DNA of 64,000 nt, from positions 124,001 through 188,000 of the forward strand of contig NZ_BATP01000059.1 of NCBI RefSeq assembly GCF_000739615.1, written 5' to 3'. This document shows, in pieces, positions 19,364-34,240 of this stretch. Under the pieces are notes generated by a model. That model had not been told where the DNA came from, did not search any database, and saw only the letters and a list, made by a program, of their open reading frames with translations. Source of the DNA: Haloferula sp. BvORR071 (GTDB lineage Bacteria; Verrucomicrobiota; Verrucomicrobiia; Verrucomicrobiales; Akkermansiaceae). The position numbers and the translations under genes were made by a program. Numbering within the stretch: position 1 is the first letter of the stretch; each line of letters begins with the position of its first letter.

Positions 19364-19408
19364 CCAATTTCCAGGTCCCGCCATCTGACGGTTTAATTGC
19401 GTTGGCTG

Positions 19409-19441: not shown

Positions 19442-19552
19442 TTCCGCTCGCTGATCCTCACACCCACTCGATTGTGGCACCAGCCACTCCACTTTCACTC
19501 GAGCCACTTCCCGCACTACCATATCCCAGGCGAAAGGCTCTCGTTGGAAAGC

Positions 19553-20161: not shown

Positions 20162-20355
20162 GGGTGGCTTTGAAAACTTTGCGGAGCCAGCCCTTGCAGA
20201 CCGGTAACCCCACATTTTGCCTCTGGCGGAGCACGCATCAACCGATTTCTCCGCGCTCCCTCTGCGACCCCTGCGCCTCCGCGGTTACCTCCACATCCCG
20301 GGTGCCTTCAATCCGCGCCCATCCGTGGAAAGCCGTGGTTCACCCCGCACTATAC

Positions 20356-20664
20356 TCAGCCGGTCCCGTTTCCGCCCTGCCTGCCCTTCACGGTCCACAC
20401 GTCCGGAGCATTGCTGCGGGGATTGAACCCGCCATCCAGGATTTCGAGATTACGAATCAAGCAGTATCGGAAGATCCTCCAACCCGGAGCACCCTGGCCC
20501 TCCTCGACCCACGCCACGAGGACAAGAGCCCCGTATCGGGGGGCTTGGGCGAGCGAATGAGGTTCTACCACGAACACCTCTCCGAGGTGCTGGAATTTTA
20601 CCTGTCTGAAATGTTGAATCGCCCCACGAAGTGCAGGCAGGGCGGCATAGGAGGAAGTCGCCAT
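20356..20664 (-). CDS. Small WYL-like single-domain protein
   Basis: About 102 residues from ATG 20664. The core IQHFRQVKFQHLGEVFVVEP, then ALVLVAWVEEGQ, then GWRIFRYCLIRNLEIL and FNPRS resembles a stand-alone WYL-type ligand-binding beta domain (R.V.F.Y.G..R.VEP ... L...AW ... WR.F....I..L.(V/I)L). There is no helix-turn-helix, so it cannot bind DNA alone. Two similar small genes are at 26212 and 28293. A regulatory or ligand-binding role is inferred from the fold resemblance only. Confidence 0.6.
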   Translation of the reverse strand: MATSSYAALPALRGAIQHFRQVKFQHLGEVFVVEPHSLAQAPRYGALVLVAWVEEGQGAPGWRIFRYCLIRNLEILDGGFNPRSNAPDVWTVKGRQGGNGTG

Positions 20665-20710
20665 ACGGAGGATTTTAGGCAATTTTTTTGCCTGTCAAGA
20701 GCACCCCGGT

Positions 20711-20923
20711 TCACTCCACCCGCTTCCACCCGATCGTCTCCATCCCCTTGTAGCTCGCCGCAAACATCCAAGGTTTTTCCCCCGGCTTCAATCCTGCCGG
20801 AGTAAACTCCACCAAGCGGATCCCGCCGTCCCAGTGCGGCACTGATTGCGGCAATAGCCGGTCACCGACCTCGCAGTTTTCCGGCCGTTCCATCACGCGT
20901 TCTTCAATTGGGCTTAGGGTCAT
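20711..20923 (-). CDS. Hypothetical 70-residue protein
   Basis: It starts MTLSPIEERVMERPENCEVG at ATG 20923. The body is rich in aromatic residues and ends SYKGMETIGWKRVE. The VGD...WxRV pattern recalls the frame at 17593. No signal peptide and no family recognised. It lies 46 bases upstream of the WYL-like gene on the same strand, so the two could form a unit. Confidence 0.5.
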   Translation of the reverse strand: MTLSPIEERVMERPENCEVGDRLLPQSVPHWDGGIRLVEFTPAGLKPGEKPWMFAASYKGMETIGWKRVE

Positions 20924-21083
20924 GATCGCACCATCTAACAATGTTTCGCGAGCGCAAGGTCTCGCACGGTTCTTTCCGTTCGAAATTTGCCTCTTCCGCG
21001 TCACTCGTTTCGCTTACGCGCCATAGGAAGACGGAGGGGTAAAATTTGCATCTCGCAATCTTCCGCATGCAGCGTGCCTCCTG

Positions 21084-21263
21084 TTAGTCCCCATGGAAAA
21101 GCTCTAGGCGCACCGGAAAAATCCCGTTGTCGGAACCCAGGGGTGATTTGTCCTTTGCCACAGACTGCGCCCAAGCAAGGAGCAGTCCCACAAATAGGAT
21201 CATCGAGGGCAAGGTCAGATCAGGGCGGCGATTCGGGGAGAAGAAGTCAGGGAGTCGCTTCAT
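21084..21263 (-). CDS. Small single-span membrane protein
   Basis: A 59-residue frame starting MKRLPDFFSPNRRPDLTLPS. A hydrophobic helix (MILFVGLLLAWAQSVA) follows, then a short polar tail. AAAGGGGC lies just before the ATG. Family unknown; being so small and having a good ribosome binding site, it is plausible but not certain. Confidence 0.5.
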   Translation of the reverse strand: MKRLPDFFSPNRRPDLTLPSMILFVGLLLAWAQSVAKDKSPLGSDNGIFPVRLELFHGD

Positions 21264-21679
21264 GCCGCCCCTTTTGCAAGCAGCGTGCCATCGCCATCTC
21301 CTTCCGAACGCCCCAAATCCCGCTCTCCTACTCCTCATTTCGCACTACGCGGCCATGCCAAGCGCCACCGTCCGCCTCCTCTGCGAAGCCGGCAGCCCGA
21401 GCCGTGCACTGTCCCCGACGGTGCCCCGGCCTCCGCCCCTTCTACTCGCGCGGATCCTCGGTCAAATTTGTACTCGCGCTCACCTATAGCGGCGCCTTCC
21501 TCCTCACCGCCGGCGTCGGCACCATCATCATCGAGGTGAAGCCCCTTTCTGCCCTGTCGACCGATGATGACGCGCTCATGCGCATTGCGTCGCCGCGGTT
21601 CGCGGGATCCGCTCACAAGCACGCTTCACTTCGAGTTTTCATTAGCGCATTTCTTCGCCTGCAACATGTTAGACTTCCA
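21264..21679. other. Gap before the lipoprotein hydrolase
   Basis: About 415 bases. The frame of the hydrolase is open upstream through this stretch but without protein character, except for a short hydrophobic piece near 21460-21550 (VLALTYSGAFLLTAGVGTII) that has no start of its own. No other element was seen. Confidence 0.35.
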
Positions 21680-22591
21680 ATGTTTCTCCTCCGACACTCC
21701 CTCGTTCTGCTCATAACCCTGCTGGCCTCCTGTCAACCCCTCCGCCCCTACGCGCCCATAGTCACCTCTAAGCCGGTCAATTTCGTCACCCTCACCGGCG
21801 GGCAACGGGTGCACGTGGAGCGCTACGGCCATCGCGGTCCTGCCGTCCTTCTCATCCACGGCTTTTGCGCTTCCTCCTACTGCTTCCGCCACCTCGCTCC
21901 TGAACTTGCGCGTGACCATCGCGTCTTCGCCATCGATCTCAATGGTTTCGGCTACACTGAGCGCCCGCGCGATCCCGCCGCATACGATCTCGATGGCCAA
22001 GCCCGCTTGGTCAATGAAACCACCCAAAAACTGGGGCTCACTCGCGTGAATTTCGTTGGTCACTCCTTCGGAGCCGTAGTCGCCTTGCGCGCCGCCGAAC
22101 TCGAGCCCCGGCGCTGCGATCGGCTGGTCCTTGCCTGCCCCGCTTCAAGTGTCGGTCTGCCCGCCTTGCTGCGCTTTACACCGACCCGTTATCTGCTCTA
22201 TCCCTTCGTGAGGATGCAGCTCTCTTCGCCCCAGGCCTTCCGGGCCGCTGCCAGCACTGCCTTCTACCAGCCAGGACTCCCCACTCTTGAAGACAGCGAA
22301 GTATTCCGCAATCAGCTGCTCGTTGAAGGGTTTCCGGATGCCTATCATGGCTTCGGTCGCGCGATCGATCCCGAACCAGGAAAACAACTGCCGGCCGGCG
22401 AGAATCTCCGGAAGCCGATCCTAGTAATTGCCGGGAGACACGACCGCGTCATTCCCCTTGGGAATGTCCGCAGCACCACCCGGCATCTTCATCACCCGCA
22501 ACTGGTGATTCTGGAGAACAGCGGTCATGGTGCCATGGAAGAAGAACCCCGTGCCATGGCCCGCTACATTCGGCGCTTCATCGATCGCTGA
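21680..22591 (+). CDS. Alpha/beta hydrolase, predicted lipoprotein
   Basis: A 303-residue serine hydrolase. ATG 21680 gives a lipoprotein signal with lipobox LLASC (Cys18). The catalytic triad is visible: Ser129 in FVGHSFGAV, Asp255 in IAGRHDRVIP and His283 in ENSGHGAMEEEP. The oxyanion strand is LLIHGFCASSYCFRHLAPEL and ERPRDPAAYDLDGQA follows. It resembles epoxide hydrolase/haloalkane-like esterases of the HLDH group. Substrate unknown. The upstream open frame to 20987 is not credible as coding. Confidence 0.92.
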   Translation: MFLLRHSLVLLITLLASCQPLRPYAPIVTSKPVNFVTLTGGQRVHVERYGHRGPAVLLIHGFCASSYCFRHLAPELARDHRVFAIDLNGFGYTERPRDPAAYDLDGQARLVNETTQKLGLTRVNFVGHSFGAVVALRAAELEPRRCDRLVLACPASSVGLPALLRFTPTRYLLYPFVRMQLSSPQAFRAAASTAFYQPGLPTLEDSEVFRNQLLVEGFPDAYHGFGRAIDPEPGKQLPAGENLRKPILVIAGRHDRVIPLGNVRSTTRHLHHPQLVILENSGHGAMEEEPRAMARYIRRFIDR

Positions 22592-22594
22592 AAA

Positions 22595-22918
22595 AGACTG
22601 ACCTCCGCAAAACCCCGCAACCTGCCCCGGAATCTGATATTCCGCGAAGCTCTGCCGCACTTCCATCTGCGTCACCGATGCGCTGTCCCCGAATTTTTCT
22701 GACAGGTCCTCCGGAATTTCCATCTCCAATCACCTTCGGCGATTCCCCGCACTCGCGGTCGGCGTCCACTTGAGAGAATCGCCTGAAATCTCCTCGAAGC
22801 TCTGCACCAGCGACGGCTTGATGTAGATCGTGCACTTCATCCGATCACTCTTCGCCGCAGACCACGTTCCACTGCCATCACGGTAAGCTATCGTCTTCTT
22901 TATATAGATCTTCACCAA
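22595..22918 (-). CDS. Possible pair of tiny genes, or one gene split by a stop
   Basis: A first frame (22730-22918) reads MVKIYIKKTIAYRDGSGTW and ends ASAGNRRR with TGA. The same frame continues at once with TTG-GAG-ATG: MEIPEDLSEKFGDSASVTQ, MEVRQSFAEYQIPGQVAGF, on to the hydrolase 3' end. The second part resembles the start of UPF0175-type antitoxins, which begin with a beta strand IEIP and a helix, but the match is weak. Either two coupled small genes or one gene broken by a stop. The true end of the second frame is unclear because it runs into the hydrolase gene on the other strand. Confidence 0.35.
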
Positions 22919-23086
22919 GTCCCGCAGAGGTCCTCCTGGATTCCCTCGATCGCCAACGGCCCCATCCCTTGGAATCTCTTCTGAAGCGGTTCAGCTTTCC
23001 GCCATCGATGACCGCCCGCTACTGTCATGGATTGCTGGATTAAGTCTATCCTTGGCTCCTTTCCTCCAGCCTGCCAGACTACCGGA

Positions 23087-23326
23087 ATGGCAGAAATGGA
23101 CCTCTCTCACACGTCGCAAATCATCGTCCTCTCCGCCCGCATGAAGGCCCTCGAAGAATCTTTGGACGCCTTGACCGGAACCCCTTCCAAGGAGGTCCGA
23201 TATCAGCGGGTGAAGGAAATCGTATGTCAGCTCATGGAGGCCTGCGAGGACGAAATTCCGAGAGAGCTGCACGCGCACTTGCAAGAATCAGTGGAGAAGA
23301 TCGTCGGCACCTGCGGCGAGGAGTAG
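23087..23326 (+). CDS. Small helical hypothetical protein
   Basis: A 79-residue protein starting MAEMDLSHTSQIIVLSARMK. It is highly helical (KALEESLDALTG; RYQRVKEIVCQLMEACEDEI; LHAHLQESVEKIVGTCG), acidic, with no signal peptide. Its last 100 bases overlap the 3' end of the acetyltransferase on the other strand. No family recognised. Confidence 0.6.
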   Translation: MAEMDLSHTSQIIVLSARMKALEESLDALTGTPSKEVRYQRVKEIVCQLMEACEDEIPRELHAHLQESVEKIVGTCGEE

Positions 23327-23793
23327 AGGAGAGCGGCGGGCATTCCCGAATGCCGAACATAGTAATTATCCCACTTCCCAACTCCATCCGGCATGAAGCC
23401 ATGGCGCCGGTAGAACCGGTTAGATGCGCTTTCCTTCACCGCGACGACAAAGACCGGCAACCTCAGGCGTTCTGCCTCTTCGAGTATGAAATGTAGGACC
23501 TGGCTCCCGATTCCCCGGTTCTGGAATTTTGGGAGTATATAGAGGTGCTCCAACTCTACTCCCGTCTCACTTCGTCGCGCCGCGTAAAACCCGACCGTCT
23601 TGCCATCCACCTCGATAGTTCGCGTGAACTCCGGCGCGAAGCTCACCAGCAATCGAGTCCGCGAGCCCTTGGGATCAAACCTCCCAACGCGTGCTAAACT
23701 CTTTCGCATCGCCGCGGCGCGGATTTTCGCCAGCCGTTCAAAGTCATTCTGTGTCACATTCAGGACCCGAATTGAATCGACAGGCGTATGCAT
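23227..23793 (-). CDS. GNAT family N-acetyltransferase
   Basis: A 188-residue acetyltransferase starting at ATG 23793 (MHTPVDSIRVLN). The GNAT core is clear: VDGKTVGFYAARRS, then VELEHLYILPKFQNRGIGSQ (acetyl-CoA loop Q/R-x-x-G-x-G/A) and VLHFILEEAERLRLPVFVV, then SASNRFYRRHGF. The C-terminal 40 residues after YYVRHSGMPAALL read antisense to the helical gene and have no family character, so the original stop may have been lost. Substrate unknown. Confidence 0.88.
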   Translation of the reverse strand: MHTPVDSIRVLNVTQNDFERLAKIRAAAMRKSLARVGRFDPKGSRTRLLVSFAPEFTRTIEVDGKTVGFYAARRSETGVELEHLYILPKFQNRGIGSQVLHFILEEAERLRLPVFVVAVKESASNRFYRRHGFMPDGVGKWDNYYVRHSGMPAALLYSSPQVPTIFSTDSCKCACSSLGISSSQASMS

Positions 23794-24178
23794 AGGATTT
23801 TCAACGAGGATCAAGAGCCACATGATAAGGCCAAGACGGCCCAGCTCCAAGGTCCATGCTTCAGCCTTTTAACGTCCGGAAAACTGGTGACTCAGCGCAC
23901 CACAGGGCGATCATCGCTCGAACCGTCTCGATCGCTACGCAGAAGTCGTGATGGAGGCGACAACGCGGTGGATCCCATCCGAGCTCCGCTACTTGCCCGG
24001 CTTGATATTGCCGTTGGCATCAGTGAGTACCACCGTCGAGCTTCCCCCCACCATGAGCACAGTCAACCTATTCAACCTGAATATCTCACGACCTTGGATC
24101 ATCAAATCTCGCCGTAGGGAAGGGGTGGTGGTTCAAGGAAGCACTTGTGACGACATAAGGCTGCGTCGATGGTAACGG
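23794..24178. other. Gap without a gene
   Basis: About 385 bases. Frames on both strands are short and lack motifs. The plus-strand gene that follows starts with a GTG at 24179. Confidence 0.4.
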
Positions 24179-24454
24179 GTGTCCGATCGTCGCTATCCCG
24201 TTGAGGAGTTCGCTCGCGATTTCATGGCGATCAGCGCCGATCGCTCCGAGAGAGGGGATGACGCATTCATTCGAACGGTGTGTTACTTGGGCCGGGTCTA
24301 CGCCCATCCCAGCAAGAGGACGCAGCGTGCTGCCTTTATCTCACTGGTGGGCGCCTTCCTATCTCAGCACATCGACAAGTTCGACACCGGTAAGATTGAA
24401 GTGGCCGGGCCGGAAGCGTCTTTAGTTTCCGCCCATCTCCTTCGGGCACTCTAG
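24179..24454 (+). CDS. Hypothetical 91-residue protein
   Basis: It starts with GTG (MSDRRYPVEEFARDFMAISA) and contains DDAFIRTVCYLGRVYAHPSK, then RAAFISLVGAFLSQHIDKF, and ends ASLVSAHLLRAL. It looks like a compact helical soluble protein. No ribosome binding site stands out, and no family was recognised. Confidence 0.5.
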   Translation: MSDRRYPVEEFARDFMAISADRSERGDDAFIRTVCYLGRVYAHPSKRTQRAAFISLVGAFLSQHIDKFDTGKIEVAGPEASLVSAHLLRAL

Positions 24455-24818
24455 GATGTCGTCGCGCCTGTCGCGCTTGATCGGTCTCACGCTCTGCCCA
24501 CGCCGGGCACGTGCTTGCCGTGGCGGAGCGTTACGCCGCCGCGCCTTGACCCTTTTGAATATCTATCGCAGAGCGCCGAGCTTCGTAGCCTCCCCGGTAA
24601 CAAGCGGACTACCCCCTAGGTGGGGGTAATCGTTACTTGGGAGTAATCTGCCGAGTGCATTGTGGCAGAAGTCAGTGCAGTATGCCCTGAGTACGCCTAC
24701 GAGGTGTAGCAGAGCTGCCGGCCGGGCACTGGAACTGCAACGGTTTGGCCCGAGTTCCATAGCGGTATGCTTCCTGCGAGGTGGTCTTTAGCGGGCCGTG
24801 GGCCCGGGAATCCACTAT
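24455..24818. other. Gap upstream of the DUF6799-type gene
   Basis: About 360 bases without a gene. It holds a GC-rich dyad at 24611-24627 (listed separately). Nothing else was recognised. Confidence 0.4.
24611..24627. promoter_or_regulatory. GC-rich inverted repeat, possible operator
   Basis: ACCCCC TAGGT GGGGGT, a 6-bp perfect dyad with a 5-bp centre, about 190 bases upstream of the DUF6799-type gene. There is no T-run, so it is unlikely to be a terminator. A related CCCCC-AATAGA-GGGGG arrangement is at 30219-30233. Its role as a binding site is inferred. Confidence 0.35.
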
Positions 24819-25499
24819 ATGCAAACCATGAAGACACCAATCAGCAAAACAGGCCAACTCCTCATCGCTATCCTTGCCGCCTCGATGAGCCTTGCGGTGG
24901 CCAAAGACGGAGTGGCAATGAAGGACGGGAAGGTTGTTACCGTGAAGGACGGCAACAAGACCGAACTCACGGACGAAGCGACTCTCAAGGATGGTACCAA
25001 GGTGATGAAGGACGGCAGGGTTGTATCGCCCGATGGCACCAAATGGAGCCTGAAAAATGGCGAGATGATCGATTGGGACGGGAAGTTCAGCGTCCATTTC
25101 GTGATGGATGGTGTCGTCCGCAAGGACGGCAAGATCTGGCTCATCAAGGCCGGTGAAAAGTCCGAGGTATCGGGGGAGACCACTCTCACCGATGGAACGA
25201 AGGTGCAGGCGGACGGCAACGTGGTTTCGAAGGAAAACAAGAAGTGGGAGATGGATGATGGTGACGCAATCCTCTCCGATGGCCGTCCAGTGGTGGAGGG
25301 ATCGATCGTCGGCTGGGGTGAAAAGCCCCTGCTCACGGACGACTGTTCCGGAACCTTGCTGAAATCAGACAAATCCTTCCCCAACGGGAACAAGGTCCAG
25401 CCGGATGGCACTATCCTGTTCTCCGATGGCAACAAGGGGAAGATCAAGGATCTGGATGTGATCCAAGAAGGCGGAACTTATTTGCCCGCCATCAAATAA
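24819..25499 (+). CDS. Secreted protein with repeated DUF6799-like motifs
   Basis: A 226-residue exported protein of unknown function. The start at ATG 24819 (or 24828) gives a signal peptide (TGQLLIAILAASMSLAVA). The mature part is built from repeated short strands of the type KDGKVVTVKDGNKTELTDEA and LKDGTKVMKDGRVVSPDGTK. The (K/D)DG(T/K)(K/V)V...DG pattern recurs at least six times over residues 26-220. This resembles DUF6799. The repeats suggest a small beta structure in the periplasm or envelope. Confidence 0.75.
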   Translation: MQTMKTPISKTGQLLIAILAASMSLAVAKDGVAMKDGKVVTVKDGNKTELTDEATLKDGTKVMKDGRVVSPDGTKWSLKNGEMIDWDGKFSVHFVMDGVVRKDGKIWLIKAGEKSEVSGETTLTDGTKVQADGNVVSKENKKWEMDDGDAILSDGRPVVEGSIVGWGEKPLLTDDCSGTLLKSDKSFPNGNKVQPDGTILFSDGNKGKIKDLDVIQEGGTYLPAIK

Positions 25500-25708
25500 T
25501 TTGCTTAGCAATTTCCCGGAATTGTTTGCGGCGGGTTGCTTTGGCAGTCCGCCGTATTTGATGTGTCCTGGCGCCCCGCGCCCCCCCCTGCCGCGGTCGA
25601 CAAGGCGTGCGGAAAGCGGCGCGCCGAGGCGAGTTGCAAATCTCAGGCGCTCCGCCGAAGGCTGGAGCCGCCTAATACCGTTCGGCACACTACGTGCGAT
25701 GGGGAGGC

Positions 25709-25930
25709 ATGTATAACCTCCTCGAAGACAACCCGCTCTCGGACGCCCCTTTTTCGCCGGTGCTCGAGGGAGAAGCTCGCCTCAACTTCATCTCGAAGTT
25801 CGTAGAGACCCATCCCGCCGTCGCCCCGGAGGATGTAGAACTCGTGCTTGACGATGCCGCGGCCTGGATCGAGGGGCCCGAAACTCACGACGCATTGGTC
25901 AGGGCTGTGGAACGGGAACTCGGCATTTGA
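25709..25930 (+). CDS. Hypothetical 73-residue protein, intact copy
   Basis: ATG 25709 follows GGGGAGG. The protein begins MYNLLEDNPLSDAPFSPVLE and contains EARLNFISKFVETHPAVAPE and ELVLDDAAAWIEGPETHDAL, ending in VRAVERELGI. It is acidic, helical and soluble. No family was recognised. A decayed copy lies at 3917-4121, and here too it is directly followed by exonuclease III sequence, in this case a truncated copy. Confidence 0.65.
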   Translation: MYNLLEDNPLSDAPFSPVLEGEARLNFISKFVETHPAVAPEDVELVLDDAAAWIEGPETHDALVRAVERELGI

Positions 25931-25940
25931 CCTCATCACA

Positions 25941-26068
25941 TCAGAATTGTGCCCTCTAACGTCAATGTCGTGAACGGTCCGCGGTCAGTTTCGTTCCGCT
26001 GCCTCCCGAAGTCCGCGCCGAATGTGGGGCGTCTCCAAGAACTCAAGGCCATGGAGGAAGGTTCTAAA
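25941..26068 (+). pseudogene. 5' remnant of an exonuclease III gene
   Basis: This aligns with the first 130 bases of xthA at 4132: AACGTCAATG..GTGAACGG, then TTCCGCTG, then a close match at CAAGAACTCAAGGCC and GGAGGAA. The reading frame is lost, the start codon is changed and similarity ends near 26068. The remnant follows the intact 73-residue gene exactly as xthA follows the decayed copy at 4 kb, so this is the mirror image of the first locus. Confidence 0.75.
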
Positions 26069-26211
26069 GGGAGCCCTCTGTGGCCATGAATGGCTATTGC
26101 AGTGACGATGATCGTGCGCGCGATGGAGCCGCCTTTGACGGGCATCTGGTGGAAGCCACCGAACCTTGATCTCCTACGGAAAATCCTGTGCCCAAATGCT
26201 TAATTCCGCCT

Positions 26212-26556
26212 ATGAGCGCGTCACACGAGCTAACCTTTGATCTTGCTGACCTTGGGCGCGCCATTCGCGAGCACCATTCGGTGCGTGGAAGGCGGTTGCA
26301 TGATCGATTTGAAGGGGATCCCGTGTTGATCAAGCCTTGCCCGGACACCCATCGCCTTTGTCTTCTTGTCAAAATCCGCACCATCAATGGTCGGCGGCAG
26401 CGGGGTTGGCATCACCTCGCTCTCAATGAGATCTCGGAGCTTGAGATCTTGAGTGAGAGGTTTCCCGAGCATGAGTATCCGCCCTGGCTAAAGGACCAGC
26501 TTTCGCCCTTTGGGAATTGCGACGCGGATCTATGGGAGAGGGGCCGCTGGGAGTGA
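26212..26556 (+). CDS. Small WYL-like single-domain protein
   Basis: A 114-residue soluble protein from ATG 26212. The sequence LGRAIREHHSVRGRRLHDRF, then LIKPCPDTHRLCLLVKIRTI, then WHHLALNEISELEIL and SERFPEHEYPPWL follows the same outline as the proteins at 20356 and 28293: a helix ending (I/E)H, strands, an aromatic W near the end and I..(L/V)(E/Q)I. No DNA-binding domain. A ligand-binding role is inferred from the WYL-like outline only. Confidence 0.6.
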   Translation: MSASHELTFDLADLGRAIREHHSVRGRRLHDRFEGDPVLIKPCPDTHRLCLLVKIRTINGRRQRGWHHLALNEISELEILSERFPEHEYPPWLKDQLSPFGNCDADLWERGRWE

Positions 26557-26983
26557 GCAGAAGATCATCGCAGCTGCCGCCTGTCGCCGTGTTCAGAGGG
26601 TTTTCATTGGCTCGCCCAATTCAGGCCTGGTCGCGAAAGGCTGGCTGGGCCGCCAGCGGCACCGCGGTCTCTCACGGCTTGCCTCACAGCCGCGATCCCC
26701 TTCCAACGGGAACACAGGCGCTGAAGTCCCCCGGTAATGGCCTAGGGCAAAGGGACCACCAGACTTGACTTGGATGAAGAGCGGCTTGGGCAGGATGAGA
26801 TCGCGATCGAGAAGTGGTATGGAATCTTGGTTCGTCACCCATTCTTGCCGGCCGAGGGCACACGCAGGTCAAATGGCCTGTGCTGGTTCGTTGGGCTAGG
26901 CATATGACCGACAAACTCCCCTGAATTCCTCCCTCACTCGAATCCCTTCCGTGCGGTGGCACTGGATCTGCGAAGGGATACGG
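26557..26983. other. Gap without a convincing gene
   Basis: About 425 bases. A minus-strand frame at 26593-26838 (MTNQDSIPLLDRDLILPKPL) has mild protein character but no matching family and no ribosome binding site. AAGGGA at the right end belongs to the next gene. Confidence 0.35.
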
Positions 26984-27265
26984 ATGGACCCAAGTCAACC
27001 CAATACCAAAGGCCAGCAGTCGGATTCCGATGCCGAGCCTGCTGAGCAGACGAATGCCCCTGAAGTATTTCGCGAAAGCGAAGAAGATGCCTCAGACAGA
27101 GCGAGGAAACCCCGAGTGCTTCCTCAGCCTGTAGGCCGCACGAGTGCCTGTTGTGAAGAATACGCCGGCTGCATTCACAGCGCAGTGCAAGCGCGTCCCT
27201 TCGAGTCAATTGCGATTGCGCTCGGCGTTGGAATATTGATCGGTGTCTTGATTGGCAGGAGCTAG
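26984..27265 (+). CDS. Small DUF883/ElaB-like membrane-anchored protein
   Basis: A 93-residue protein from ATG 26984, with AAGGGA six bases upstream. A polar, acidic N-terminal part rich in Asp and Glu precedes CCEEYAGCIHSAVQARPFES and the C-terminal hydrophobic segment IAIALGVGILIGVLIGRS. The (R)PFE(S/T)(I/L)..ALG.G.(L/I)(I/L)G.L.(G)R ending is typical of YqjD/ElaB/DUF883 C-tail anchors, which bind ribosomes in stationary phase in E. coli. Several Cys residues are unusual for the family. Confidence 0.75.
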   Translation: MDPSQPNTKGQQSDSDAEPAEQTNAPEVFRESEEDASDRARKPRVLPQPVGRTSACCEEYAGCIHSAVQARPFESIAIALGVGILIGVLIGRS

Positions 27266-27328
27266 TCTTCGCCCATGTGGGCGCAATGGATGGAGCAACG
27301 GCTGAGAGCGGCGCCTACTGCCGAAAAG

Positions 27329-27357
27329 GCCGGGGCTCCGTTTGTGGAGTCCCGGCA
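27329..27357 (-). terminator. Terminator of the YflT-type gene
   Basis: Read on the minus strand: CCGGGACTCC ACAAAC GGAGCCCCGG (one G-T pair) followed by CCTTTTCGG. It lies about 35 bases downstream of the stop codon of the gene at 27392. Confidence 0.7.
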
Positions 27358-27391
27358 GGTGTTTCGGGACTTCAAGCGCCCTGGGAAAGAG

Positions 27392-27946
27392 TCAGCCCAT
27401 GGTCGCCACGTTGACCGGGTTGCCAGCCTGCAATGCTGCACGTGTGTCGACACCAGCCAAGTCATGGACGGTGATCGCCACTCCGCCAGATTGAATGGCA
27501 TTGTGGATTTCGGTGGCATCTTTTTCGGAAACGCCCGCCTTCACGAGGGAAGTTACCATCGAGGTAATTCCTCCAGCGGCAATGCCGATGCCTGCTCCAG
27601 TCGCTGCAGTCGCGGCCACTCCGGTCAAACCAAGGGCGGCGGCGATTGGGCCCGCTGCCAGGAGGAAACCCAGTCCAGGAATTGCGAGTGCGGCAACACC
27701 CACAAGCAGACCTCCCACCGTTCCGAGCAAGCCACCGGCAACCGCGCCTGAAGCTGCATCGGTGGCGGCGGTTCCGGCAGTGCTGCCTGCCGGTGCGCTC
27801 GTAGATGCCATCACCTCACTGCCCTTCGCGCTGGGATCCAGAGCTGCGACTCCGATGTCAGAATCGGGAACTCCGGCAGCCTTGAGAGATTCCACGGCGG
27901 TGTTGGCATCGGAGTGATTACGATAGGTAGCAATAAGTGTGGTCAT
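27392..27946 (-). CDS. General stress protein 17M/YflT-type protein with a glycine-rich membrane segment
   Basis: A 184-residue protein from ATG 27946 (MTTLIATYRNHSDANTAVES); the longer frame upstream is not coding-like. Residues 1-35 match the YflT (heat-induced stress) outline: strand, helix with A..AV..L..AGVPDSDIGV. A long Gly/Ala-rich hydrophobic region follows (TAATDAASGAVAGGLLGTVG through LLAAGPIAAALGLTG) and a short second alpha-beta unit at the end (SMVTSLVKAGVSEKDATEIH; VAITVHD). Similar fusions appear in stress clusters of many bacteria. It probably inserts in or associates with the membrane. Confidence 0.85.
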   Translation of the reverse strand: MTTLIATYRNHSDANTAVESLKAAGVPDSDIGVAALDPSAKGSEVMASTSAPAGSTAGTAATDAASGAVAGGLLGTVGGLLVGVAALAIPGLGFLLAAGPIAAALGLTGVAATAATGAGIGIAAGGITSMVTSLVKAGVSEKDATEIHNAIQSGGVAITVHDLAGVDTRAALQAGNPVNVATMG

Positions 27947-28292
27947 TTTGTAGGATCGGTTGGATGAGGATTTTTCCTCAGCCCGCCTCTCGCAGTTTGC
28001 AGGCCGCCGATTGTTAGACGAATGAAACCCATGCTCCTTATGGTATATGCCTCCTCGTGCTGAGCGCGGGGGTCCTGCTTCCACATGCAAAATGCCCGGA
28101 ATTGCGCTGATGCACGGGCCTAACGCATGTGCTGCGAGCAGCGTTGCTTTGCTCGGGTCCACGTTGGTAGCGGATGGCGGTCCGCTGCTCTTATACACGT
28201 AGTAGATCGCAGTCCGCCTCCCCGCACTTCTTCGGATCGTTGTTTACTGATCGCGCGATCCTTTGCGTTGTGGTGTGGTCCCCTCTTTCTCG
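27947..28292. other. Gap without a gene
   Basis: About 345 bases between divergent genes. It likely carries both promoters. No repeat or clear binding site was recognised. Confidence 0.4.
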
Positions 28293-28580
28293 ATGACTTC
28301 AGTTCCCCCTCTCGACATCCACCATCTAGGCCGCGGCATCCAGGAACACCGCCTCATCGGCCTTGCACTTGGCGAGGAATCGATGAGAGGAGAACCCTAT
28401 CGACTGGTTAGTTCTCCAATCTCCGGGGTCCTATCCCTCCTGATTCGCGTGACATTCGATTCGGGCCAGCGGGTCAAACCTCTGTGGACCCTTCTGAATT
28501 TCGCGGATATCACGAGGGTGCAGATTCGTCCGGCGATCTTCGAACCGTGCGAGGTTCCGTGTGAATTCCGGCACGAATGA
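28293..28580 (+). CDS. Small WYL-like single-domain protein
   Basis: A 95-residue soluble protein from ATG 28293. LDIHHLGRGIQEHRLIGLAL, then YRLVSSPISGVLSLLIRVTF, then LWTLLNFADITRVQIR and IFEPCEVP share the plan of the genes at 20356 and 26212. It lies on the same strand as cardiolipin synthase, 109 bases before it. The fold assignment is an inference. Confidence 0.55.
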   Translation: MTSVPPLDIHHLGRGIQEHRLIGLALGEESMRGEPYRLVSSPISGVLSLLIRVTFDSGQRVKPLWTLLNFADITRVQIRPAIFEPCEVPCEFRHE

Positions 28581-28689
28581 CTGACTGCGCGAATCCGGGG
28601 AGGGTGGGTTCCCACAATTGGAATTGCTTCACCCCTATTCGTCGCTACATACCTTCATGCTTGGGATCCTTGGCAAATGGAAGGGAAGG

Positions 28690-30171
28690 ATGAAACGGCG
28701 CTTTCCCCGTCTAGCGGCGAAAGCGAGCTACGTTCGTAAACGCAAAAAGCGCTTCCTCGCCTTGTTTCTCACGGTCGCTCACGTGCTGGGAGCACTCAGT
28801 TCCGTGCAGGCGATCATGACAGCTAGAACCGCCCAAGGTGCCACCGCTTGGGTCGTGGCCCTGAACTCCATCCCGGTTCTTTCGGTGCCCGCCTATTGGG
28901 TCTTCGGCAGGACGAAGTTTGAAGGCTATGTTTCCGCCAGAAGGGGTAGCGACGGGAGATCGAGCGCGGTTGTCAGTACGTTGCGGGAAGAATTCAACGC
29001 TGCCCGGCCCCCTGCGCCATCGTCCGGAAATGGGGAGGCGCGCATTCTCGAGCGCTTGACCAAGCTTCCTTCCACCTCAGGCAACGAGGTCCAGCTCCTC
29101 CGCAACAGCGAGCAGATCTTCCCATCGATTTTTGAGGGTATCGATGCGGCCAAATCCTACATCCTCGTCCAATTCTACATTGTCAGGGATGACGATCTGG
29201 GCAGGCAGATCAAAGACCGCTTGGTGGCGGCAGCCGGCCGCGGCGTGGGTGTCCACTTCCTCTACGATGAAATCGGCAGCTATGGACTCCCCGACGCCTA
29301 TCGGGACGAACTTCAACGCGCCAGCATCGAGATCCTGCCTTTCAATTCAAGGAAGGGCTGGACCAACCGCTTCCAGGTCAACTTCCGCAACCATCGGAAA
29401 GTCGTCATTGTGGATGGCCGGGTCGCTTGGACGGGAGGTGCCAATATTGGCGACGAATACAGCGGCGGCGACAAGGATCTGTCTCCGTGGCACGACACCA
29501 TGGTCCGGGTGCAGGGCCCGGCGGTGCAGGCCATCCAACTGCCATTCTTTGAGGACTGGCTCTGGAGTAGCGACAAGGAGTTGAAGCTTGAGTGGAGACC
29601 TGCTGCGGTCTCCGCAGGAACCGGCCAAACCGTCCAGTGCATCCCCAGCGGTCCCGCCGATTCCTTGGAAACCTGTACCCTTTACTTCCTGAGCTTGGTG
29701 AACTCAGCGCGCTCGCGACTTTGGATCGCTACGCCCTACTTCGTGCCGGATGAGCAAATTGTCAGCGCTCTTGAACTTGCTGCTCTCCGCGGGGTCGAGG
29801 TTAGAATCCTGGTCACCGACAAGTGTGACAGCCCTCTCGTTGACCTCTCTGGCTGGGCTTACGTTGAGCGCTTAGGCAGAGTGGGCGTGCGCTTTTATCG
29901 GCACTGCGAAGGCTTCATGCACCAAAAGGTGACCCTCGTGGATTCTGATATCGCTACGGTGGGGTCGGCGAACATCGACAACCGCTCTTTCCGGCTGAAT
30001 TTCGAACTGACGGTGCAAGTCGAGGATCGCGGCTTTGCCGCTCAGGTAGCAGAGATGTTCGAGAAGGATTTCAAGAAATCCCGTGTTGTCGGGTTCAAGG
30101 AGCCTACCGAGCGCGGCACCCAATTCCTTATGAAGGTCCGGGCGGCGAATCTGCTCTCACCAATCCAGTGA
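28690..30171 (+). CDS. cls: Cardiolipin synthase
   Basis: Phospholipase D superfamily enzyme that joins two phosphatidylglycerol molecules into cardiolipin, inner membrane, 493 residues from ATG 28690 (GGAAGGGAAGG upstream); ATG 28657 is an alternative. Two N-terminal hydrophobic helices (RFLALFLTVAHVLGALSSVQ; WVVALNSIPVLSVPAYWVFG) precede the catalytic halves. The first HKD motif is HRKVVIVDG with His235, Lys237 and Asp242; the second is MHQKVTLVD with His411, Lys413 and Asp418, followed by GSANIDNRSFRLNFE. Cardiolipin synthesis is typically raised by osmotic and envelope stress, which suits the gene set here. Confidence 0.95.
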   Translation: MKRRFPRLAAKASYVRKRKKRFLALFLTVAHVLGALSSVQAIMTARTAQGATAWVVALNSIPVLSVPAYWVFGRTKFEGYVSARRGSDGRSSAVVSTLREEFNAARPPAPSSGNGEARILERLTKLPSTSGNEVQLLRNSEQIFPSIFEGIDAAKSYILVQFYIVRDDDLGRQIKDRLVAAAGRGVGVHFLYDEIGSYGLPDAYRDELQRASIEILPFNSRKGWTNRFQVNFRNHRKVVIVDGRVAWTGGANIGDEYSGGDKDLSPWHDTMVRVQGPAVQAIQLPFFEDWLWSSDKELKLEWRPAAVSAGTGQTVQCIPSGPADSLETCTLYFLSLVNSARSRLWIATPYFVPDEQIVSALELAALRGVEVRILVTDKCDSPLVDLSGWAYVERLGRVGVRFYRHCEGFMHQKVTLVDSDIATVGSANIDNRSFRLNFELTVQVEDRGFAAQVAEMFEKDFKKSRVVGFKEPTERGTQFLMKVRAANLLSPIQ

Positions 30172-30362
30172 GCCCCGCAGTCTCTCACTTTGCTGAACCG
30201 GAAAGGTTTGAATGAGGCCCCCAATAGAGGGGGAACTCCCGGCCCGCGCTGATCGAAATTGCTCGTTGGTGCCCTATCAAGGGAGCCCCTTTGCCTTGGT
30301 CATTTGACAGCCTCCGGCTCCGTCTTACGGTACACCTTTCCTACAACCGAAAGATCGATCCA

Positions 30363-30608
30363 ATGTCAGCCTCCAATCTTCACGAAGTCAGCGTATCCCT
30401 CAACGACGAAGCACGCGCCATCAAGGTCCTGTTCGGCCACCTCCCGCGAGTAGGGGAGACTCTTACGCTTCAGGGCACGAACTACGAGGTGCAAAAGGTC
30501 GTCTTTGATCTCATCGAAGGTGACGGTGGCAGGTTCGGACACCCGAGCCTCTTCTGTCGCCCTGCAACCCTGTCGCTCGGTGGAGATTCCGCGACTCCAG
30601 CTTCCTGA
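30363..30608 (+). CDS. Hypothetical 81-residue protein
   Basis: From ATG 30363: MSASNLHEVSVSLNDEARAI, KVLFGHLPRVGETLTLQGTN, YEVQKVVFDL. The pattern P(R)VGE(T/R)(L/I)...G..Y.V..V matches small beta-rich proteins of unknown role, seen in several phyla. It lies between cardiolipin synthase and a small membrane protein on the same strand. Confidence 0.6.
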   Translation: MSASNLHEVSVSLNDEARAIKVLFGHLPRVGETLTLQGTNYEVQKVVFDLIEGDGGRFGHPSLFCRPATLSLGGDSATPAS

Positions 30609-30637
30609 TTCGCTCGCTCCATAGACCCCTTGAGGCC

Positions 30638-30925
30638 ATGAACAACTACCTCCTGGCCGCCTTGGTTCTCGGCCTCACTGCATTGTCATTCATTGCCGAT
30701 CGCTTTCGGAACCCTGACAAAGTCTTCCGCGCTTGGTTTTGGCTCGCCTTGATTGCATTCGTCGAGGTCGCCGCCGGTCTCTTCCGTGCTGGCAATTACA
30801 CTCGCCCTAACGACATGCTCCTCGCCGAAATTTGGTCAAACGCCTTTCAGTGGCTCTTCATGGGGCTCGCCCTCCTGTCTCTCGCATCGCTCCGCAAGCC
30901 GGGGCTGCAATCGCGCGAGTCATGA
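30638..30925 (+). CDS. Small multi-span membrane protein
   Basis: A 95-residue protein from ATG 30638, with TTGAGG just upstream. Hydrophobic segments: LLAALVLGLTALSFIADRF, VFRAWFWLALIAFVEVAAGL and AFQWLFMGLALLSLASLR, so three spans. The polar tail is short. No family recognised. It starts 29 bases after the preceding gene and may be co-transcribed with it. Confidence 0.65.
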   Translation: MNNYLLAALVLGLTALSFIADRFRNPDKVFRAWFWLALIAFVEVAAGLFRAGNYTRPNDMLLAEIWSNAFQWLFMGLALLSLASLRKPGLQSRES

Positions 30926-31466
30926 TAGGTTCCTAGGCTCTTGGTCCTTCATGGTATTGGAGGCATGCTGCCAGACATTTCGGTTCACCCCGTTTGATCT
31001 CCGGCTGAGGAGGTCACTTTCCCGTTAACCGGGAGCATCACCACAGGGTAATTGGCAATGGGCTGGATAGGCACCCGGCCCTCTCGATAGGGCGGTGACG
31101 AAGCCACCGTCTACGTCACCTCCATAAAGCCTCTGCACGGTAGGGAGGCCGCCCACGCCTCTGGCAGCCACGACTTCCGCTAGAATTGAAAATGCAACGG
31201 GTACGCCACGGCCAGAAAAGCAAAACTTAGCAGAGTTCACTTGAACCTTCGGTGCCGATGTGGTTGAAACGGTGCGCCCGCGTCAGCGTGGGCTGGGCGT
31301 CAGAACCCATGACAGCCAACCGGACAAATGGTCCGGGAGGCACCGGCGCATGTCCAAGGAGCTTCGTGTATGCGGGGCTCTAAAAGGCCCGTGCGGTCAT
31401 GCTGTCATGACTTCTGAACTCCCGGGCCACCTGGAACGGGCAATCGAACTCGAATTGCCCTAGGCC
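30926..31466. other. Gap with a possible gene relic
   Basis: About 540 bases. Minus-strand frames around 31025-31240 have patches of protein character in two frames: GRGVPVAFSILAEVVAARGV in one, EGRVPIQPIANYPVVMLPVN in another near 31030-31085. This suggests a broken small gene, but its identity is not recognisable. Otherwise nothing. Confidence 0.35.
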
Positions 31467-32447
31467 ATGCTCGAAGAAATTATAGCTGCCATATTTGTCT
31501 GCGGGATCCCCGCTGCCGCGGTCCTTCTCGGTTGGAAGCGAGGAAAAGCCGTGGGGCGAAAAGCTTTCTTTCTCAGTAGCGTCGGGTGGTGGGTGGTCGT
31601 GGTCATCACTATGATATGCTTTAGCGAATACAGGGTCGATCCCCCAGCGCCCGGCCAAGCACCACAATTCCCGATTGGTGGCATCATCGGTCTCATCGTG
31701 TTGGCCCGGTCCGCTTACGGGGCCTTCGCAATCCTTGGCAAGCGACTCAAGGACGCTTCGGTTCCATGTTGGGCGGTATGCATCATGGGATGCATTGCCC
31801 TCTTGCTGGTGCCTTACGTGATTGCGCTTTTCCTGCCTTCTAAGCCTCTGAAGGAAACAGAAACCGGAGAGCTCACCCGAGGCCCCGAACGAGGCAATAT
31901 CATGAGACACAGAGATTACGCCGTAGTTATTCCAGAAGGCGAGGAGGCCGAGGAAGGCTACGTCCGAATGGAACATGGAACGCCCTATTCCATCCGCCTT
32001 GAAAACAGAAGTTCACGGCGGTGCAACGCACGAATTGCCATCGATGGTAATCCTGTCGGTACGTTCCGCATTGATCAGCGGTCTTCCATCGTCTTGGAAC
32101 GGCCCTCGCACGACACGGGCCGTTTCACCTTCTTCAAGGTGTGGGCAAAGGAGGCTGGCGAAGCCGGGATCGTGGAAAACGAATCAACAGGACTCATCTC
32201 CGTGACCTTCATACCCGAGTTGGCCGATCATCTGAAAGGGCTTGAGGCAGCGCGACTCTCGGAGGATGATGATGCGGGAGGGACGGGCCTTGCCGGTCAT
32301 AGCTCCCAGCGCTTCCAGCCAGCGGCGTCAATAAAGACCGACGAAAGCGAGGCATTCACAATCCACTTCCGCCTTGTGGCCAAATGCCCCGCTGTTCGGC
32401 CTTTGGTTGCTAGATCCACCCCTATCCCTCCGGCTGTTGGCACGTGA
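31467..32447 (+). CDS. Membrane protein with a beta-rich C-terminal domain
   Basis: A 326-residue protein. Four hydrophobic segments occur in the first 135 residues (MLEEIIAAIFVCGIPAAAVL, WWVVVVITMICF, GGIIGLIVLARSAYGAFAI, VPCWAVCIMGCIALLLVPYV), with RLKDASVP between the last two, reminiscent of DUF805. Residues about 165-260 form a soluble beta domain: YVRMEHGTPYSIRLENRSSR, RCNARIAIDGNPVGTFRI, RFTFFKVWAKEAGEAG and LISVTFIPE. I have seen similar domains in proteins of unknown function, but cannot name the family. The last 60 residues look disordered. It is the last gene before the integrase gap. Confidence 0.7.
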   Translation: MLEEIIAAIFVCGIPAAAVLLGWKRGKAVGRKAFFLSSVGWWVVVVITMICFSEYRVDPPAPGQAPQFPIGGIIGLIVLARSAYGAFAILGKRLKDASVPCWAVCIMGCIALLLVPYVIALFLPSKPLKETETGELTRGPERGNIMRHRDYAVVIPEGEEAEEGYVRMEHGTPYSIRLENRSSRRCNARIAIDGNPVGTFRIDQRSSIVLERPSHDTGRFTFFKVWAKEAGEAGIVENESTGLISVTFIPELADHLKGLEAARLSEDDDAGGTGLAGHSSQRFQPAASIKTDESEAFTIHFRLVAKCPAVRPLVARSTPIPPAVGT

Positions 32448-32768
32448 GTAAATCTGAGAAACGAACGCGCAATTGTTGCTCCAAGATATGCCCCACGGGA
32501 AAGAGGAGAGCCCTTTCATGCTTTCGTTTCTCCATGCGGAAGCTGGCGCGTAATTTGCCCCGCTGGCGCATTGCTTAACTCCCAGGTCGGCAGGTTCGCG
32601 GACCTGCGCAGTGTTGTTCAGAGGCGGCAGGTACTGAGACGGGCTGATACTAGCGTGTGGGTTGGTGCGGGGCACCTTTACAACGTCATCAGCCGTGCAA
32701 ATGCCGGTCAGACAGGTCCCGCCGACACCGCGAGGGCGGTGGTCGATAGTTCAGACTCGCCGTTTTCG
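32448..32768. other. Gap between the membrane protein and the integrase
   Basis: About 320 bases with no gene. Short hairpins such as GCAGGTTCGCGGACCTGC (32590-32607) occur, but no T-run is attached. No tRNA-like sequence. Confidence 0.4.
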
Positions 32769-34091
32769 TCAGATGACTTTCAATGCGACCTGCGCTTCCT
32801 TGGCGCTCTTCATCAGGACTGCGCGTTTCGCCAAGCGGTCCGGCACGATGTGAAAGAATTTCTCTCCCTCCTCGCGCGGGTGGGTATTCAGGTAGTGGCG
32901 TTTTACGATGCTCTCGCTGTTGCCTGCCTGCAGCGCCACATCTCCAATGCTGCGGTGAAAGGCTACGTGATACGAGATGAAGCTGTGCCGCGGCTCATCG
33001 TGGGTAAGCTCAAAATGCTGCCTCACCATTTTGGCCAGTCGGTCGTAGTTTGTCGGCAGTATGCTCCCGGGGAAAGCGCCTAACCATTCAGCGAGATTTG
33101 CGGGGATTGTCACCTGCCGCTCATGTCGCGTCTTGGAGACGTTAGCAGGAATGCCGATCGTCAAAGTCTTGAGATTTACCAGCGAGGACTGCCTCGCCGC
33201 CATCCGCTTCAATTCCTCGGGACGGATGCCGGAGAAATAGAGCATCGCGAAATGAGGGATCATTACCCCGCCACGCCAACGCGATAGCACGGAGAAGAGG
33301 CGTAGAACCTTTCCTAGATCGGTGGTGGTGGGAGTATCGCCCTGCTCCTCTCTCACTTGGCGGGCGGCGTATACGCGGATGTCGGCTACAGGATTTTCGA
33401 AAGCGAACGGCCGGTTGCTTGCCTTGTCAGCCTTCGCGCACCAACTGAAGAATGCACTCAAATCATTTCGGTAATTGTTCCAAGTCTTTTTGCTGGCACG
33501 ATGAGTGCCGTTCTTCGCAGTCAGACCGCGCAAGAAACCTTCCACTTGGCTGCCCGTCACTTCATGAACCCACGGGTCATCCGCAAGGATAGAAAACTGC
33601 CTCAGCACGCTATGGATTCCCTTCAGGGACCGGGGACGCAACCCGTCACGCTCCCTATCGTCAATATAGAGATTGAGGGCATCAGCCATTCGAATCGTGA
33701 ATTCCGGAGGTCGGTGATGGCGCAGGAAGAAATCGACCGCCTCTGCGAGCGTGTAGGTACTCCCGAGCCTGTCGAACGCCTGCAAGGCTTCCTCGTGCTG
33801 CGAGTCTGTAAGAGCGGAGAGAACCATGCGTTGAGCCCGGCCCTTGTTCTCGAGTTGTACCCGCAGCGCCGCGGCGAAGGTTTCGGCTTTCTTCCGTTCC
33901 TTAAACCGCTTCCGCTGCCACTTCCCATCCTCCTGCCACCCTTGTACCCGATGGAAGACATAGCCTTGGGCATCCACCTTGGAAACGATGGTAATGCCCG
34001 TCGAGGCAGTCTTACTGGCCGTAGTACGGGTTCGCTTCACTCTTCTGCTCATACCTGCATCGGAGCGGAGCGTAGGCGCGTTCGCAAGCAT
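32769..34091 (-). CDS. int: Tyrosine recombinase (integrase)
   Basis: A 440-residue site-specific recombinase, with an alternative ATG 13 codons in. The N-terminal part has a basic arm-binding style region (KRTRTTASK; GYVFHRVQGWQEDGKWQRKR) and a core-binding helical domain (about 115-225). Catalytic residues seen: Arg290 in YFSGIRPEEL, Lys320, the HDEPRHSF box (His364/Arg368) and Tyr400 in VKRHYLNTH. The usual His in the LGH box is replaced by Asn in AGNSES, as in some phage-like integrases. Its start lies 58 bases from a tRNA-Met 3' fragment. The gene reads away from that site, a normal arrangement for an integrative element. Confidence 0.92.
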   Translation of the reverse strand: MLANAPTLRSDAGMSRRVKRTRTTASKTASTGITIVSKVDAQGYVFHRVQGWQEDGKWQRKRFKERKKAETFAAALRVQLENKGRAQRMVLSALTDSQHEEALQAFDRLGSTYTLAEAVDFFLRHHRPPEFTIRMADALNLYIDDRERDGLRPRSLKGIHSVLRQFSILADDPWVHEVTGSQVEGFLRGLTAKNGTHRASKKTWNNYRNDLSAFFSWCAKADKASNRPFAFENPVADIRVYAARQVREEQGDTPTTTDLGKVLRLFSVLSRWRGGVMIPHFAMLYFSGIRPEELKRMAARQSSLVNLKTLTIGIPANVSKTRHERQVTIPANLAEWLGAFPGSILPTNYDRLAKMVRQHFELTHDEPRHSFISYHVAFHRSIGDVALQAGNSESIVKRHYLNTHPREEGEKFFHIVPDRLAKRAVLMKSAKEAQVALKVI

Positions 34092-34148
34092 CTATTGCAC
34101 GGAGTGAAGCATGGAGATTGTGCGATGCTTGATTTTTAGGGGTTGGGC

Positions 34149-34196
34149 GTCAGGCTCATAACCTGAAGGTCGTAGGTTCAAATCCTACTCCCGCCA
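34149..34196 (+). tRNA. 3' fragment of a tRNA-Met gene (anticodon CAT), probable attachment site
   Basis: The sequence starts at the anticodon arm: stem TCAGG (34150-34154), loop CTCATAA with anticodon CAT (34157-34159), stem CCTGA, variable loop, T stem GTAGG/CCTAC (34172-34188) around TTCAAAT and the 3' acceptor strand TCCCGCC plus A (34189-34196). The 5' half (acceptor and D arm) is absent; the sequence upstream does not pair with it. The GTCAGGCTCATAACCTGAAG core is initiator-like. This is what remains on one side after an element integrates into the 3' half of a tRNA gene. The encoded terminator follows at 34204. Confidence 0.85.
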
Positions 34197-34203
34197 CTTC
34201 ATA

Positions 34204-34240
34204 AGAGCCTCAACCTTGACGGGTTGAGGCTCTTTCCTTT
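34204..34240 (+). terminator. Terminator of the original tRNA gene
   Basis: A perfect 12-bp stem AGAGCCTCAACC / GGTTGAGGCTCT with a 6-base loop, followed by TTCCTTT. It lies 8 bases after the tRNA fragment, and so belongs to the chromosome side of the junction. Confidence 0.9.

What the first reader, a model, noticed from the sequence alone, without database searches (positions are those of the whole stretch)
32769..34240. Integrase next to a tRNA-Met 3' fragment: one end of an integrative element
A tyrosine recombinase reads away from a tRNA-Met fragment that starts at the anticodon arm and keeps the T arm, acceptor 3' strand and terminator, but not the 5' half. Tyrosine recombinase elements normally leave an intact tRNA at one end and such a 3' duplicate at the other. 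The 5' half is not visible elsewhere in the 34 kb to the left, so the element extends past the left edge or was rearranged.
Basis: partly seen in the sequence, partly recalled or inferred. Interest (0 to 1): 0.7.

Follow-up and report, generated by a model that had tools for sequence, protein, structure and literature searches.

The report
Mobile island at the initiator tRNA
The integrase and the broken tRNA copy are the right end of a 55-kilobase mobile DNA island that inserted into the bacterium's initiator tRNA gene and rebuilt that gene at its other end; this is a well-known way of life for mobile DNA, but the integrase's relatives keep a fixed direction relative to the tRNA gene that seems to decide whether the tRNA promoter can drive the integrase.

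Summary
An intact tRNA-fMet gene lies 20.6 kb left of the window, same orientation; its positions 26-75 equal window 34148-34197. The element between is 54.8 kb; the window holds its right 34.2 kb. In the related genome G010 the tRNA is uninterrupted, with orthologues of left and right flank genes beside it and a terminator like the one behind our fragment.

The protein is a lambda-type integrase by fold. Paired, arm-site-like repeats lie at the same places at both ends in six of six elements compared. Cargo: type I restriction-modification, a stressosome-like module, catalase, other stress proteins. Among 46 element ORFs scanned against Pfam, none is a conjugation or virion gene.

Across 68 labelled relatives the tRNA piece beside int is antiparallel (33) or parallel (35), with one change on the tree. 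Antiparallel elements supply a terminator to the rebuilt tRNA (6 of 6); in parallel ones int follows the tRNA at 61-85 bp (26 of 27), 23 of 27 without one. Inference: here int is uncoupled from the tRNA promoter. Known kind; the once-switched polarity is the interesting part.

The parts
1..34197 (.). Right 34.2 kb of the 54.8-kb integrative element (whole element C8:103393-158197; the window is C8:124001-188000)
   Evidence: Direct repeat and intact tRNA outside the window; G+C 57-61% in 4-kb bins left of 36 kb, 61-64% right of it
32769..34091 (-). Tyrosine recombinase (integrase), 440 aa; probable start at 34052
   Evidence: catalytic R290, K320, R368, Y400
34148..34197 (+). Displaced 3' part of tRNA-fMet from position 26 (attR core), identical to positions 26-75 of the intact gene
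34201..34240 (+). Terminator behind the fragment, probably the host gene's original one
   Evidence: hairpin -23.8 kcal/mol; 41 of 56 aligned columns equal to the terminator of the uninterrupted gene in G010, against 34 of 60 for the terminator at the other end
34090..34112 (+). Paired arm-site-like repeat (ATTGCACGG..GCATGG), 36 bp before the fragment; its partner lies 103 bp behind the intact tRNA, outside the window
   Evidence: 18 of 23 equal, 0 of 100 shuffles; CTATTGCACGG occurs once in the window, at 34092
372..3833 (+). Cargo: GH13 amylase-like, DUF6766, short-chain dehydrogenase; a catalase gene crosses the left window edge
   Evidence: catalase, DUF6766 and dehydrogenase shared with the G003 element at 86, 67 and 78%
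10127..15039 (-). Cargo: stressosome-like set: RsbR-like (RsbRD_N + STAS), STAS, HATPase, SpoIIE phosphatase, hybrid histidine kinase with receiver
18018..32447 (.). Cargo: DUF892, lipocalin, alpha/beta hydrolase, acetyltransferase, DUF6799, YflT-like, PLD/cardiolipin-synthase-like, DUF805
   Evidence: YflT 28.6 bits (cut-off 26.2), DUF805 23.1 (below 25.7)

Best explanation
A 54.8-kb integrative element (genomic island) inserted by its own lambda-type integrase into the anticodon arm of the only initiator tRNA gene found in the assembly. Shown: both att repeats, intact tRNA at the left, displaced 3' part at the right, a relative with the uninterrupted site, intact integrase, a small conserved Xis-like gene, paired repeats at matching places at both ends. 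Inferred: the integrase binds these repeats with its N-terminal domain and the anticodon arm with its core-binding and catalytic domains, exchanges strands in or near the anticodon loop, and excises with the help of the Xis-like protein. Because int lies at the fragment end and points inward, and the element supplies its own terminator behind the rebuilt tRNA, int is probably read from a promoter of its own and not from the tRNA promoter. How the element moves between cells is not known; small relatives with int, Xis-like, primase and helicase genes, and one with a terminase small subunit, suggest a phage-satellite-like or plasmid-like backbone.
For: Both ends; G010 site with left and right flank orthologues 1.9 kb apart around the tRNA, 70 kb apart here, and matching terminator; same architecture in G003, G009, G017, G026 and L093; repeats at +103 to +107 and 31-39 bp before the fragment in 6 of 6 elements; element-type terminator behind the rebuilt tRNA in 6 of 6; Xis-like protein in 4 elements, helicase/primase in G026 and G017; fold.
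Against: G003's repeat pair was no better than 8 of 100 shuffles. Only 4 of 16 flank proteins were found in the 34-kb stretch of G010. The Xis-like call rests on sub-threshold HTH_17 hits (0.042, 0.077), and its model was poor (pLDDT 46). No recognised replication gene is intact in this element. No reads could be checked for excision.
Confidence: 0.93

Rival explanations
1. A composite island: two or more elements accreted at one tRNA, for example a left restriction-modification part ending in a serine resolvase and a right stress-cargo part with the integrase.
For: The Xis-like gene lies near the left end here, but next to int in G017 and G026. A resolvase gene lies at C8:117190-117975. G026 has an element-type terminator again behind its fragment, so tandem insertion occurs in the family.
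Against: No third tRNA fragment in the genome and one integrase in the island. G003 shares both parts: 268-aa protein, Xis-like, DUF3102, resolvase, catalase, DUF6766, dehydrogenase, integrase.
Confidence: 0.25
2. A conjugative or mobilisable element (ICE or IME).
For: Size, integrase, restriction-modification and adaptive cargo.
Against: No relaxase, coupling protein or type IV secretion gene among 46 element ORFs scanned against Pfam; integrase not found on 72,556 plasmid records. Small ORFs were not all scanned.
Confidence: 0.05
3. A decayed or immobile island: the ends are right but it no longer moves.
For: Cargo outweighs mobility genes; the 577-aa ORF in the place of a replication gene has no family hit.
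Against: Integrase, 50-bp repeats and Xis-like gene are intact.
Confidence: 0.35
4. Chance resemblance or a degenerate whole tRNA beside an unrelated recombinase.
For: Rfam scores the place just above its cut-off.
Against: 50 of 50 identical bases and the partner gene; same arrangement in relatives; control windows.
Confidence: 0.01

Closest known systems
tDNA-targeted genomic islands as defined by Islander (PMC4383910; abstract, passages and section 4 seen)
   Same: Regenerated tRNA at one end, displaced 3' fragment in the same orientation at the other, integrase between; anticodon-arm attachment site (Islander's class A, 2083 of 3919 islands).
   Different: Nothing in the definition. The passages I saw do not treat the direction of int relative to the tRNA.
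ICEKp1, ICEclc, ICEEc1 (PMC13023037; abstract, passages and section 24 seen)
   Same: Tyrosine integrase at a tRNA 3' end; the host's tRNA terminator is displaced to the far end.
   Different: There int stands behind the intact tRNA on the same strand and is read from the tRNA promoter when integrated. Here int stands at the far end, opposite strand, and the rebuilt tRNA gets a new terminator. No conjugation genes found.
Tycheposons (recalled; Hackl 2023 not held; passages of PMC10872708 and PMC11389934 seen)
   Same: Cargo-carrying tRNA-targeted elements with tyrosine recombinase and no obvious self-transfer; in Methylophilaceae one starts at a tRNA-Met(cat).
   Different: Other phyla; relatedness of the recombinases was not tested.
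Phage satellites such as PICIs (passages of PMC10111431 seen)
   Same: Int, AlpA-like small protein and primase as key genes; one IMG/VR relative (L281/L292) has DnaB helicase and a terminase small subunit hit.
   Different: This island has no such packaging gene among the ORFs scanned and is far larger than typical satellites (recalled).
Phage lambda integrase
   Same: Fold by Foldseek (1z1b, 1z19), N-terminal three-stranded sheet before the core-binding domain, paired arm-like repeats.
   Different: 12-13% identity; the histidines of the catalytic set are replaced or shifted (HDxxR, and Asn at 391) in this family.

Membership tests
tDNA-targeted integrative element (genomic island) | Intact tRNA and a displaced 3' fragment in the same orientation bracketing the element | tested here: met
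tDNA-targeted integrative element (genomic island) | Integrase of the tyrosine recombinase family between them | tested here: met
   no PF00589 hit at E <= 0.01
tDNA-targeted integrative element (genomic island) | Uninterrupted site in a relative | tested here: met
   G010; only 4 of 16 flank proteins found in the stretch searched
tDNA-targeted integrative element (genomic island) | Excision or a circular form | not testable with these tools
   no reads or cultures
Integrative and conjugative element | Relaxase and type IV secretion genes | tested here: not met
   none among 46 element ORFs against Pfam
Prophage | Capsid, portal, large terminase, tail genes | tested here: not met
   none among the same 46 ORFs against Pfam; PHROGs was run on 8 of them
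Phage satellite | Replication gene plus packaging or capsid-modifying gene, helper phage | tested here: inconclusive
   not seen in this island; DnaB and terminase small subunit hits in relative L281/L292
Tycheposon | Descent from the described recombinase families | not tested
   original paper not held
Lambda-type heterobivalent integrase | Catalytic Arg, Lys, Arg, Tyr | tested here: met
   R290 68 of 68, K320 67 of 68, R368 and Y400 66 of 66 rows without a gap
Lambda-type heterobivalent integrase | Arm-type sites on both sides of the core | tested here: inconclusive
   repeats at matching places in 6 of 6 elements, binding not tested, G003 not above shuffles

The most novel reading that the evidence does not exclude
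In this integrase family the direction of the attachment core relative to int is a heritable trait that switched about once while the tRNA target changed many times, and it decides regulation: with parallel polarity int is read from the tRNA promoter; with antiparallel polarity the element insulates the tRNA with its own terminator and int runs on a promoter that does not depend on whether the element is integrated. The near-symmetry of the anticodon and T arms would be what allows such a flip.
Probability: 0.5. Interest if true: 0.6.

Novelty: new member of a known kind. Interest (0 to 1): 0.42.

Why it matters
It gives an exactly delimited island, with both ends and an uninterrupted relative, in a group where I found no such description in the papers searched. 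The family around it offers a natural comparison: one integrase lineage, two polarities, and a matching difference in terminators. That makes a general question testable, namely how an element's orientation in a tRNA gene sets the expression of its integrase, and it extends the tRNA-promoter switching reported for ICEKp1 (PMC13023037) by a group that appears to have avoided it. The insert also sits in the only initiator tRNA gene found in the assembly, so exact restoration of the gene and its termination is likely under strong selection.

Tried and rejected
Rejected: degenerate whole tRNA; ICE; prophage (see rivals and membership test). Tried without result: Pfam, NCBIfam and PHROGs on the 268-aa and 577-aa proteins; structure of the Xis-like protein (pLDDT 46), not searched further; plasmids (no match); phages (2 of 50,697 records, 23.5 and 30.9% identity). 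Papers on the polarity of int relative to tRNA gave nothing on the point in what I read; Williams 2002 and Hackl 2023 are not held, so polarity may be described there.

Results that weaken the reading: outgroup integrases show both polarities (4 parallel, 2 antiparallel), so antiparallel placement is not special to this family. With the relaxed terminator rule 4 of 27 parallel loci have a hairpin; they may be inverted repeats with another role. 8 of 33 displaced fragments have no terminator by the relaxed rule, and the strict rule finds 3 of 6 displaced and 5 of 6 rebuilt. 5 of 68 polarity labels have E above 1e-6. 10 of 78 ingroup rows have no tRNA piece in reach. Of 103 loci, 25 were left out of the tree as short, open at the 5' end or duplicates. 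The root of the tree is not secure: long outgroup branches meet it. The count of 17 target changes labels two tmRNA loci (L125, L134) by their nearest tRNA. The tRNA library includes genes found in the same loci, so 100% matches of intact tRNAs are self-matches; L180's apparent full match is one too, and its 5' part is not fMet.

Full report
Where it is. The window is C8:124001-188000 of a 7.8-Mb, 66-contig genome. Its name is not given. Close relatives by integrase carry titles of Verrucomicrobiota; G017 is identical in its integrase to the locus of 'Verrucomicrobiaceae bacterium E54'. The genus Luteolibacter is only my guess.

The two ends. A search of the host genome with 34120-34240 gave two places: itself, and C8:103393-103445 on the same strand at 98%. 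ARAGORN calls an intact tRNA-Met(cat) at C8:103368-103443. By sequence it resembles the initiator tRNA (recalled comparison with E. coli fMet). Positions 26-75 of the gene are identical, 50 of 50, to window 34148-34197; the flanking bases differ on both sides. The element measures 54,755 bp from repeat start to repeat start. The repeat opens at the 5' side of the anticodon stem, so the crossover is probably in the anticodon arm.

The site without it. Thirteen relatives have a tRNA-fMet that I read as uninterrupted by this element (one of them, G001, carries another insertion behind it). In G010, three left-flank proteins (84, 61 and 73%) lie on one side of the tRNA and the orthologue of window 49590-50480 (79%) 1.9 kb on the other side; here the two sides are 70 kb apart. 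The other 12 of 16 flank proteins were not found in that 34-kb stretch. The terminator of G010's gene resembles the one behind our displaced fragment (41 of 56 columns), not the one behind our rebuilt tRNA (34 of 60). G003 has the same flanks on both sides and is also occupied, its two ends lying on two contigs.

The machinery. The predicted integrase (pLDDT 88.7) has a three-stranded sheet and helix at the N terminus, then a helical and a catalytic domain; Foldseek finds lambda Int, XerA, phage Brujita Int and Tn1549 Int. Arg290, Lys320, Arg368 and Tyr400 are conserved. The usual second histidine is Asp365 with His364 before it in most rows, and the third is Asn391. Six elements with both ends seen (G000, G003, G009, G017, G026, L093) show a direct 23-bp paired repeat at +103 to +107 behind the rebuilt tRNA and 31-39 bp before the fragment. 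Five have 0 of 100 shuffles as good; G003 has 8 of 100. G009, whose integrase is only 38% identical over the alignment, has a different motif at the same two places. A small protein with invariant residues occurs in G000, G003, G017 and G026 (40-74% to ours); it resembles HTH_17 excisionase-type proteins below the cut-off in two of three copies scanned, with no hit for G026's. G026's element is only 4.9 kb and carries int, this protein, a Toprim/PriCT-like and an AAA_25 protein; L093's is 7.7 kb, G009's 66 kb.

The cargo. From left: HsdR, HsdM, HsdS, an FRG protein, a DUF5655/NucS-like protein (PADLOC candidate PDC-S18, E 7e-136), DUF488, DUF3102, a serine resolvase, MOSC, an FAD/NAD protein, an HD-domain protein, catalase, GH13-like, DUF6766, dehydrogenase, endonuclease/phosphatase, GH39 with an esterase domain, DUF4112, the stressosome-like set RsbR-STAS-HATPase-SpoIIE-hybrid kinase, DUF892, lipocalin, hydrolase, acetyltransferase, YflT-like, PLD-like. 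I read this as stress cargo; function was not tested. G003's element shares the left backbone and part of the stress genes. None of the 46 element ORFs scanned is a conjugation or virion gene by Pfam; small ORFs were not all scanned.

The family and its polarity. A scan of genome contigs with six integrases returned 78 loci, and 288 genomes of the order gave 25 matches in 23 genomes. With a library of 128 tRNAs I looked at 760 bp around and before each int start in all 103 loci. After leaving out 25, 78 rows remained: 33 with a tRNA piece antiparallel to int, 35 parallel, 10 none. Antiparallel pieces are 3' fragments in 33 of 33, counting L180 after inspection; they come mostly from fMet (22), also Arg, Val, Thr, His, Leu, Glu. 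Parallel pieces are intact in 27 of 35 and partial in 8; two of the latter (L125, L134) are tmRNA genes, others may be tandem copies. On the tree the polarity needs one change: support 98/95, 98% of 200 bootstrap trees, no shuffle of 500 as low (mean 22). The target tRNA needs 17. In two parallel genomes the displaced piece was found 37 and 73 kb downstream, beginning in the T arm, so the sublocation differs from the fMet elements.

What polarity does. In parallel loci int starts 61-85 bp behind the tRNA in 26 of 27 (L159's ORF start overlaps the tRNA), and by the relaxed rule 4 of 27 have a terminator-like hairpin between; behind rebuilt tRNAs of antiparallel elements it is 6 of 6, behind uninterrupted fMet genes 11 of 12, in random windows 5 of 234. 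By the strict rule it is 0 of 27, 5 of 6 and 8 of 351. The parallel arrangement is the one for which ICEKp1, ICEclc and ICEEc1 were reported to use the tRNA promoter for int (PMC13023037). The antiparallel arrangement cannot do so, and the supplied terminator closes the tRNA unit. That int then has a promoter unaffected by excision is inference.

Mobility. The closest IMG/VR relative (66%, L281/L292, 19.5 kb) has int at one end, DnaB, a primosomal protein, a very long protein with a weak ADP-ribosyltransferase hit, a terminase small subunit hit and nadA at the far end; no capsid gene among ten ORFs scanned. This points to satellite-like relatives, not to a proven route for this island.

Verdict. 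An ordinary kind of object, exactly delimited, in a family with one unusual and testable regularity.

Noticed in passing
L072:5535-5955 (G001), L074/L270 (G014), L101, L107, L271-L274: A small GIY-YIG nuclease gene (PF01541, E 4.8e-12 for L072; similar ORFs in L270 and L273, by eye in L101 and L107) behind the fMet gene or its displaced fragment, followed by a degenerate second fMet 3' part with an inserted TCCCGC-NNNN-GCGGGA hairpin and a further terminator. In the L072 case the nuclease's last codons and stop (GGC TCA TAA) are the anticodon-loop sequence. The hairpin pattern occurs in 5 of 288 genomes of the order, twice in tandem in G014. It looks like a separate mini-module at the same tRNA; L271 and L274 showed no nuclease ORF.
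   Followed up: partly
L139 about 5.5 kb and L126 about 4 kb before int: 5' halves of tRNA-Ser (positions 1-44 and 1-42, E 8e-15 and 5e-14) upstream of intact tRNA-Ser genes with parallel integrases; unexplained.
   Followed up: no
L071:12203-12371 (G026): Behind the displaced fragment stands an element-type terminator again, suggesting a second element in tandem beyond the contig end.
   Followed up: no
window 36192-46261: Two adjacent proteins of 1698 and 1652 aa that both match one G003 region at 73 and 68%, so probable tandem paralogues; one has laminin-G-like and glucose/sorbosone dehydrogenase domains.
   Followed up: no
integrase family, positions 364-391 of the window protein: Asp in place of the second and Asn in place of the third catalytic histidine in nearly all 68 labelled rows; six outgroup integrases have Asn at the former and mostly at the latter.
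   Followed up: partly
window 34578-36179: 533-aa protein of no Pfam family with several partial relatives in the same genome and in G007, G003 and others; a lineage-specific repeat family.
   Followed up: no
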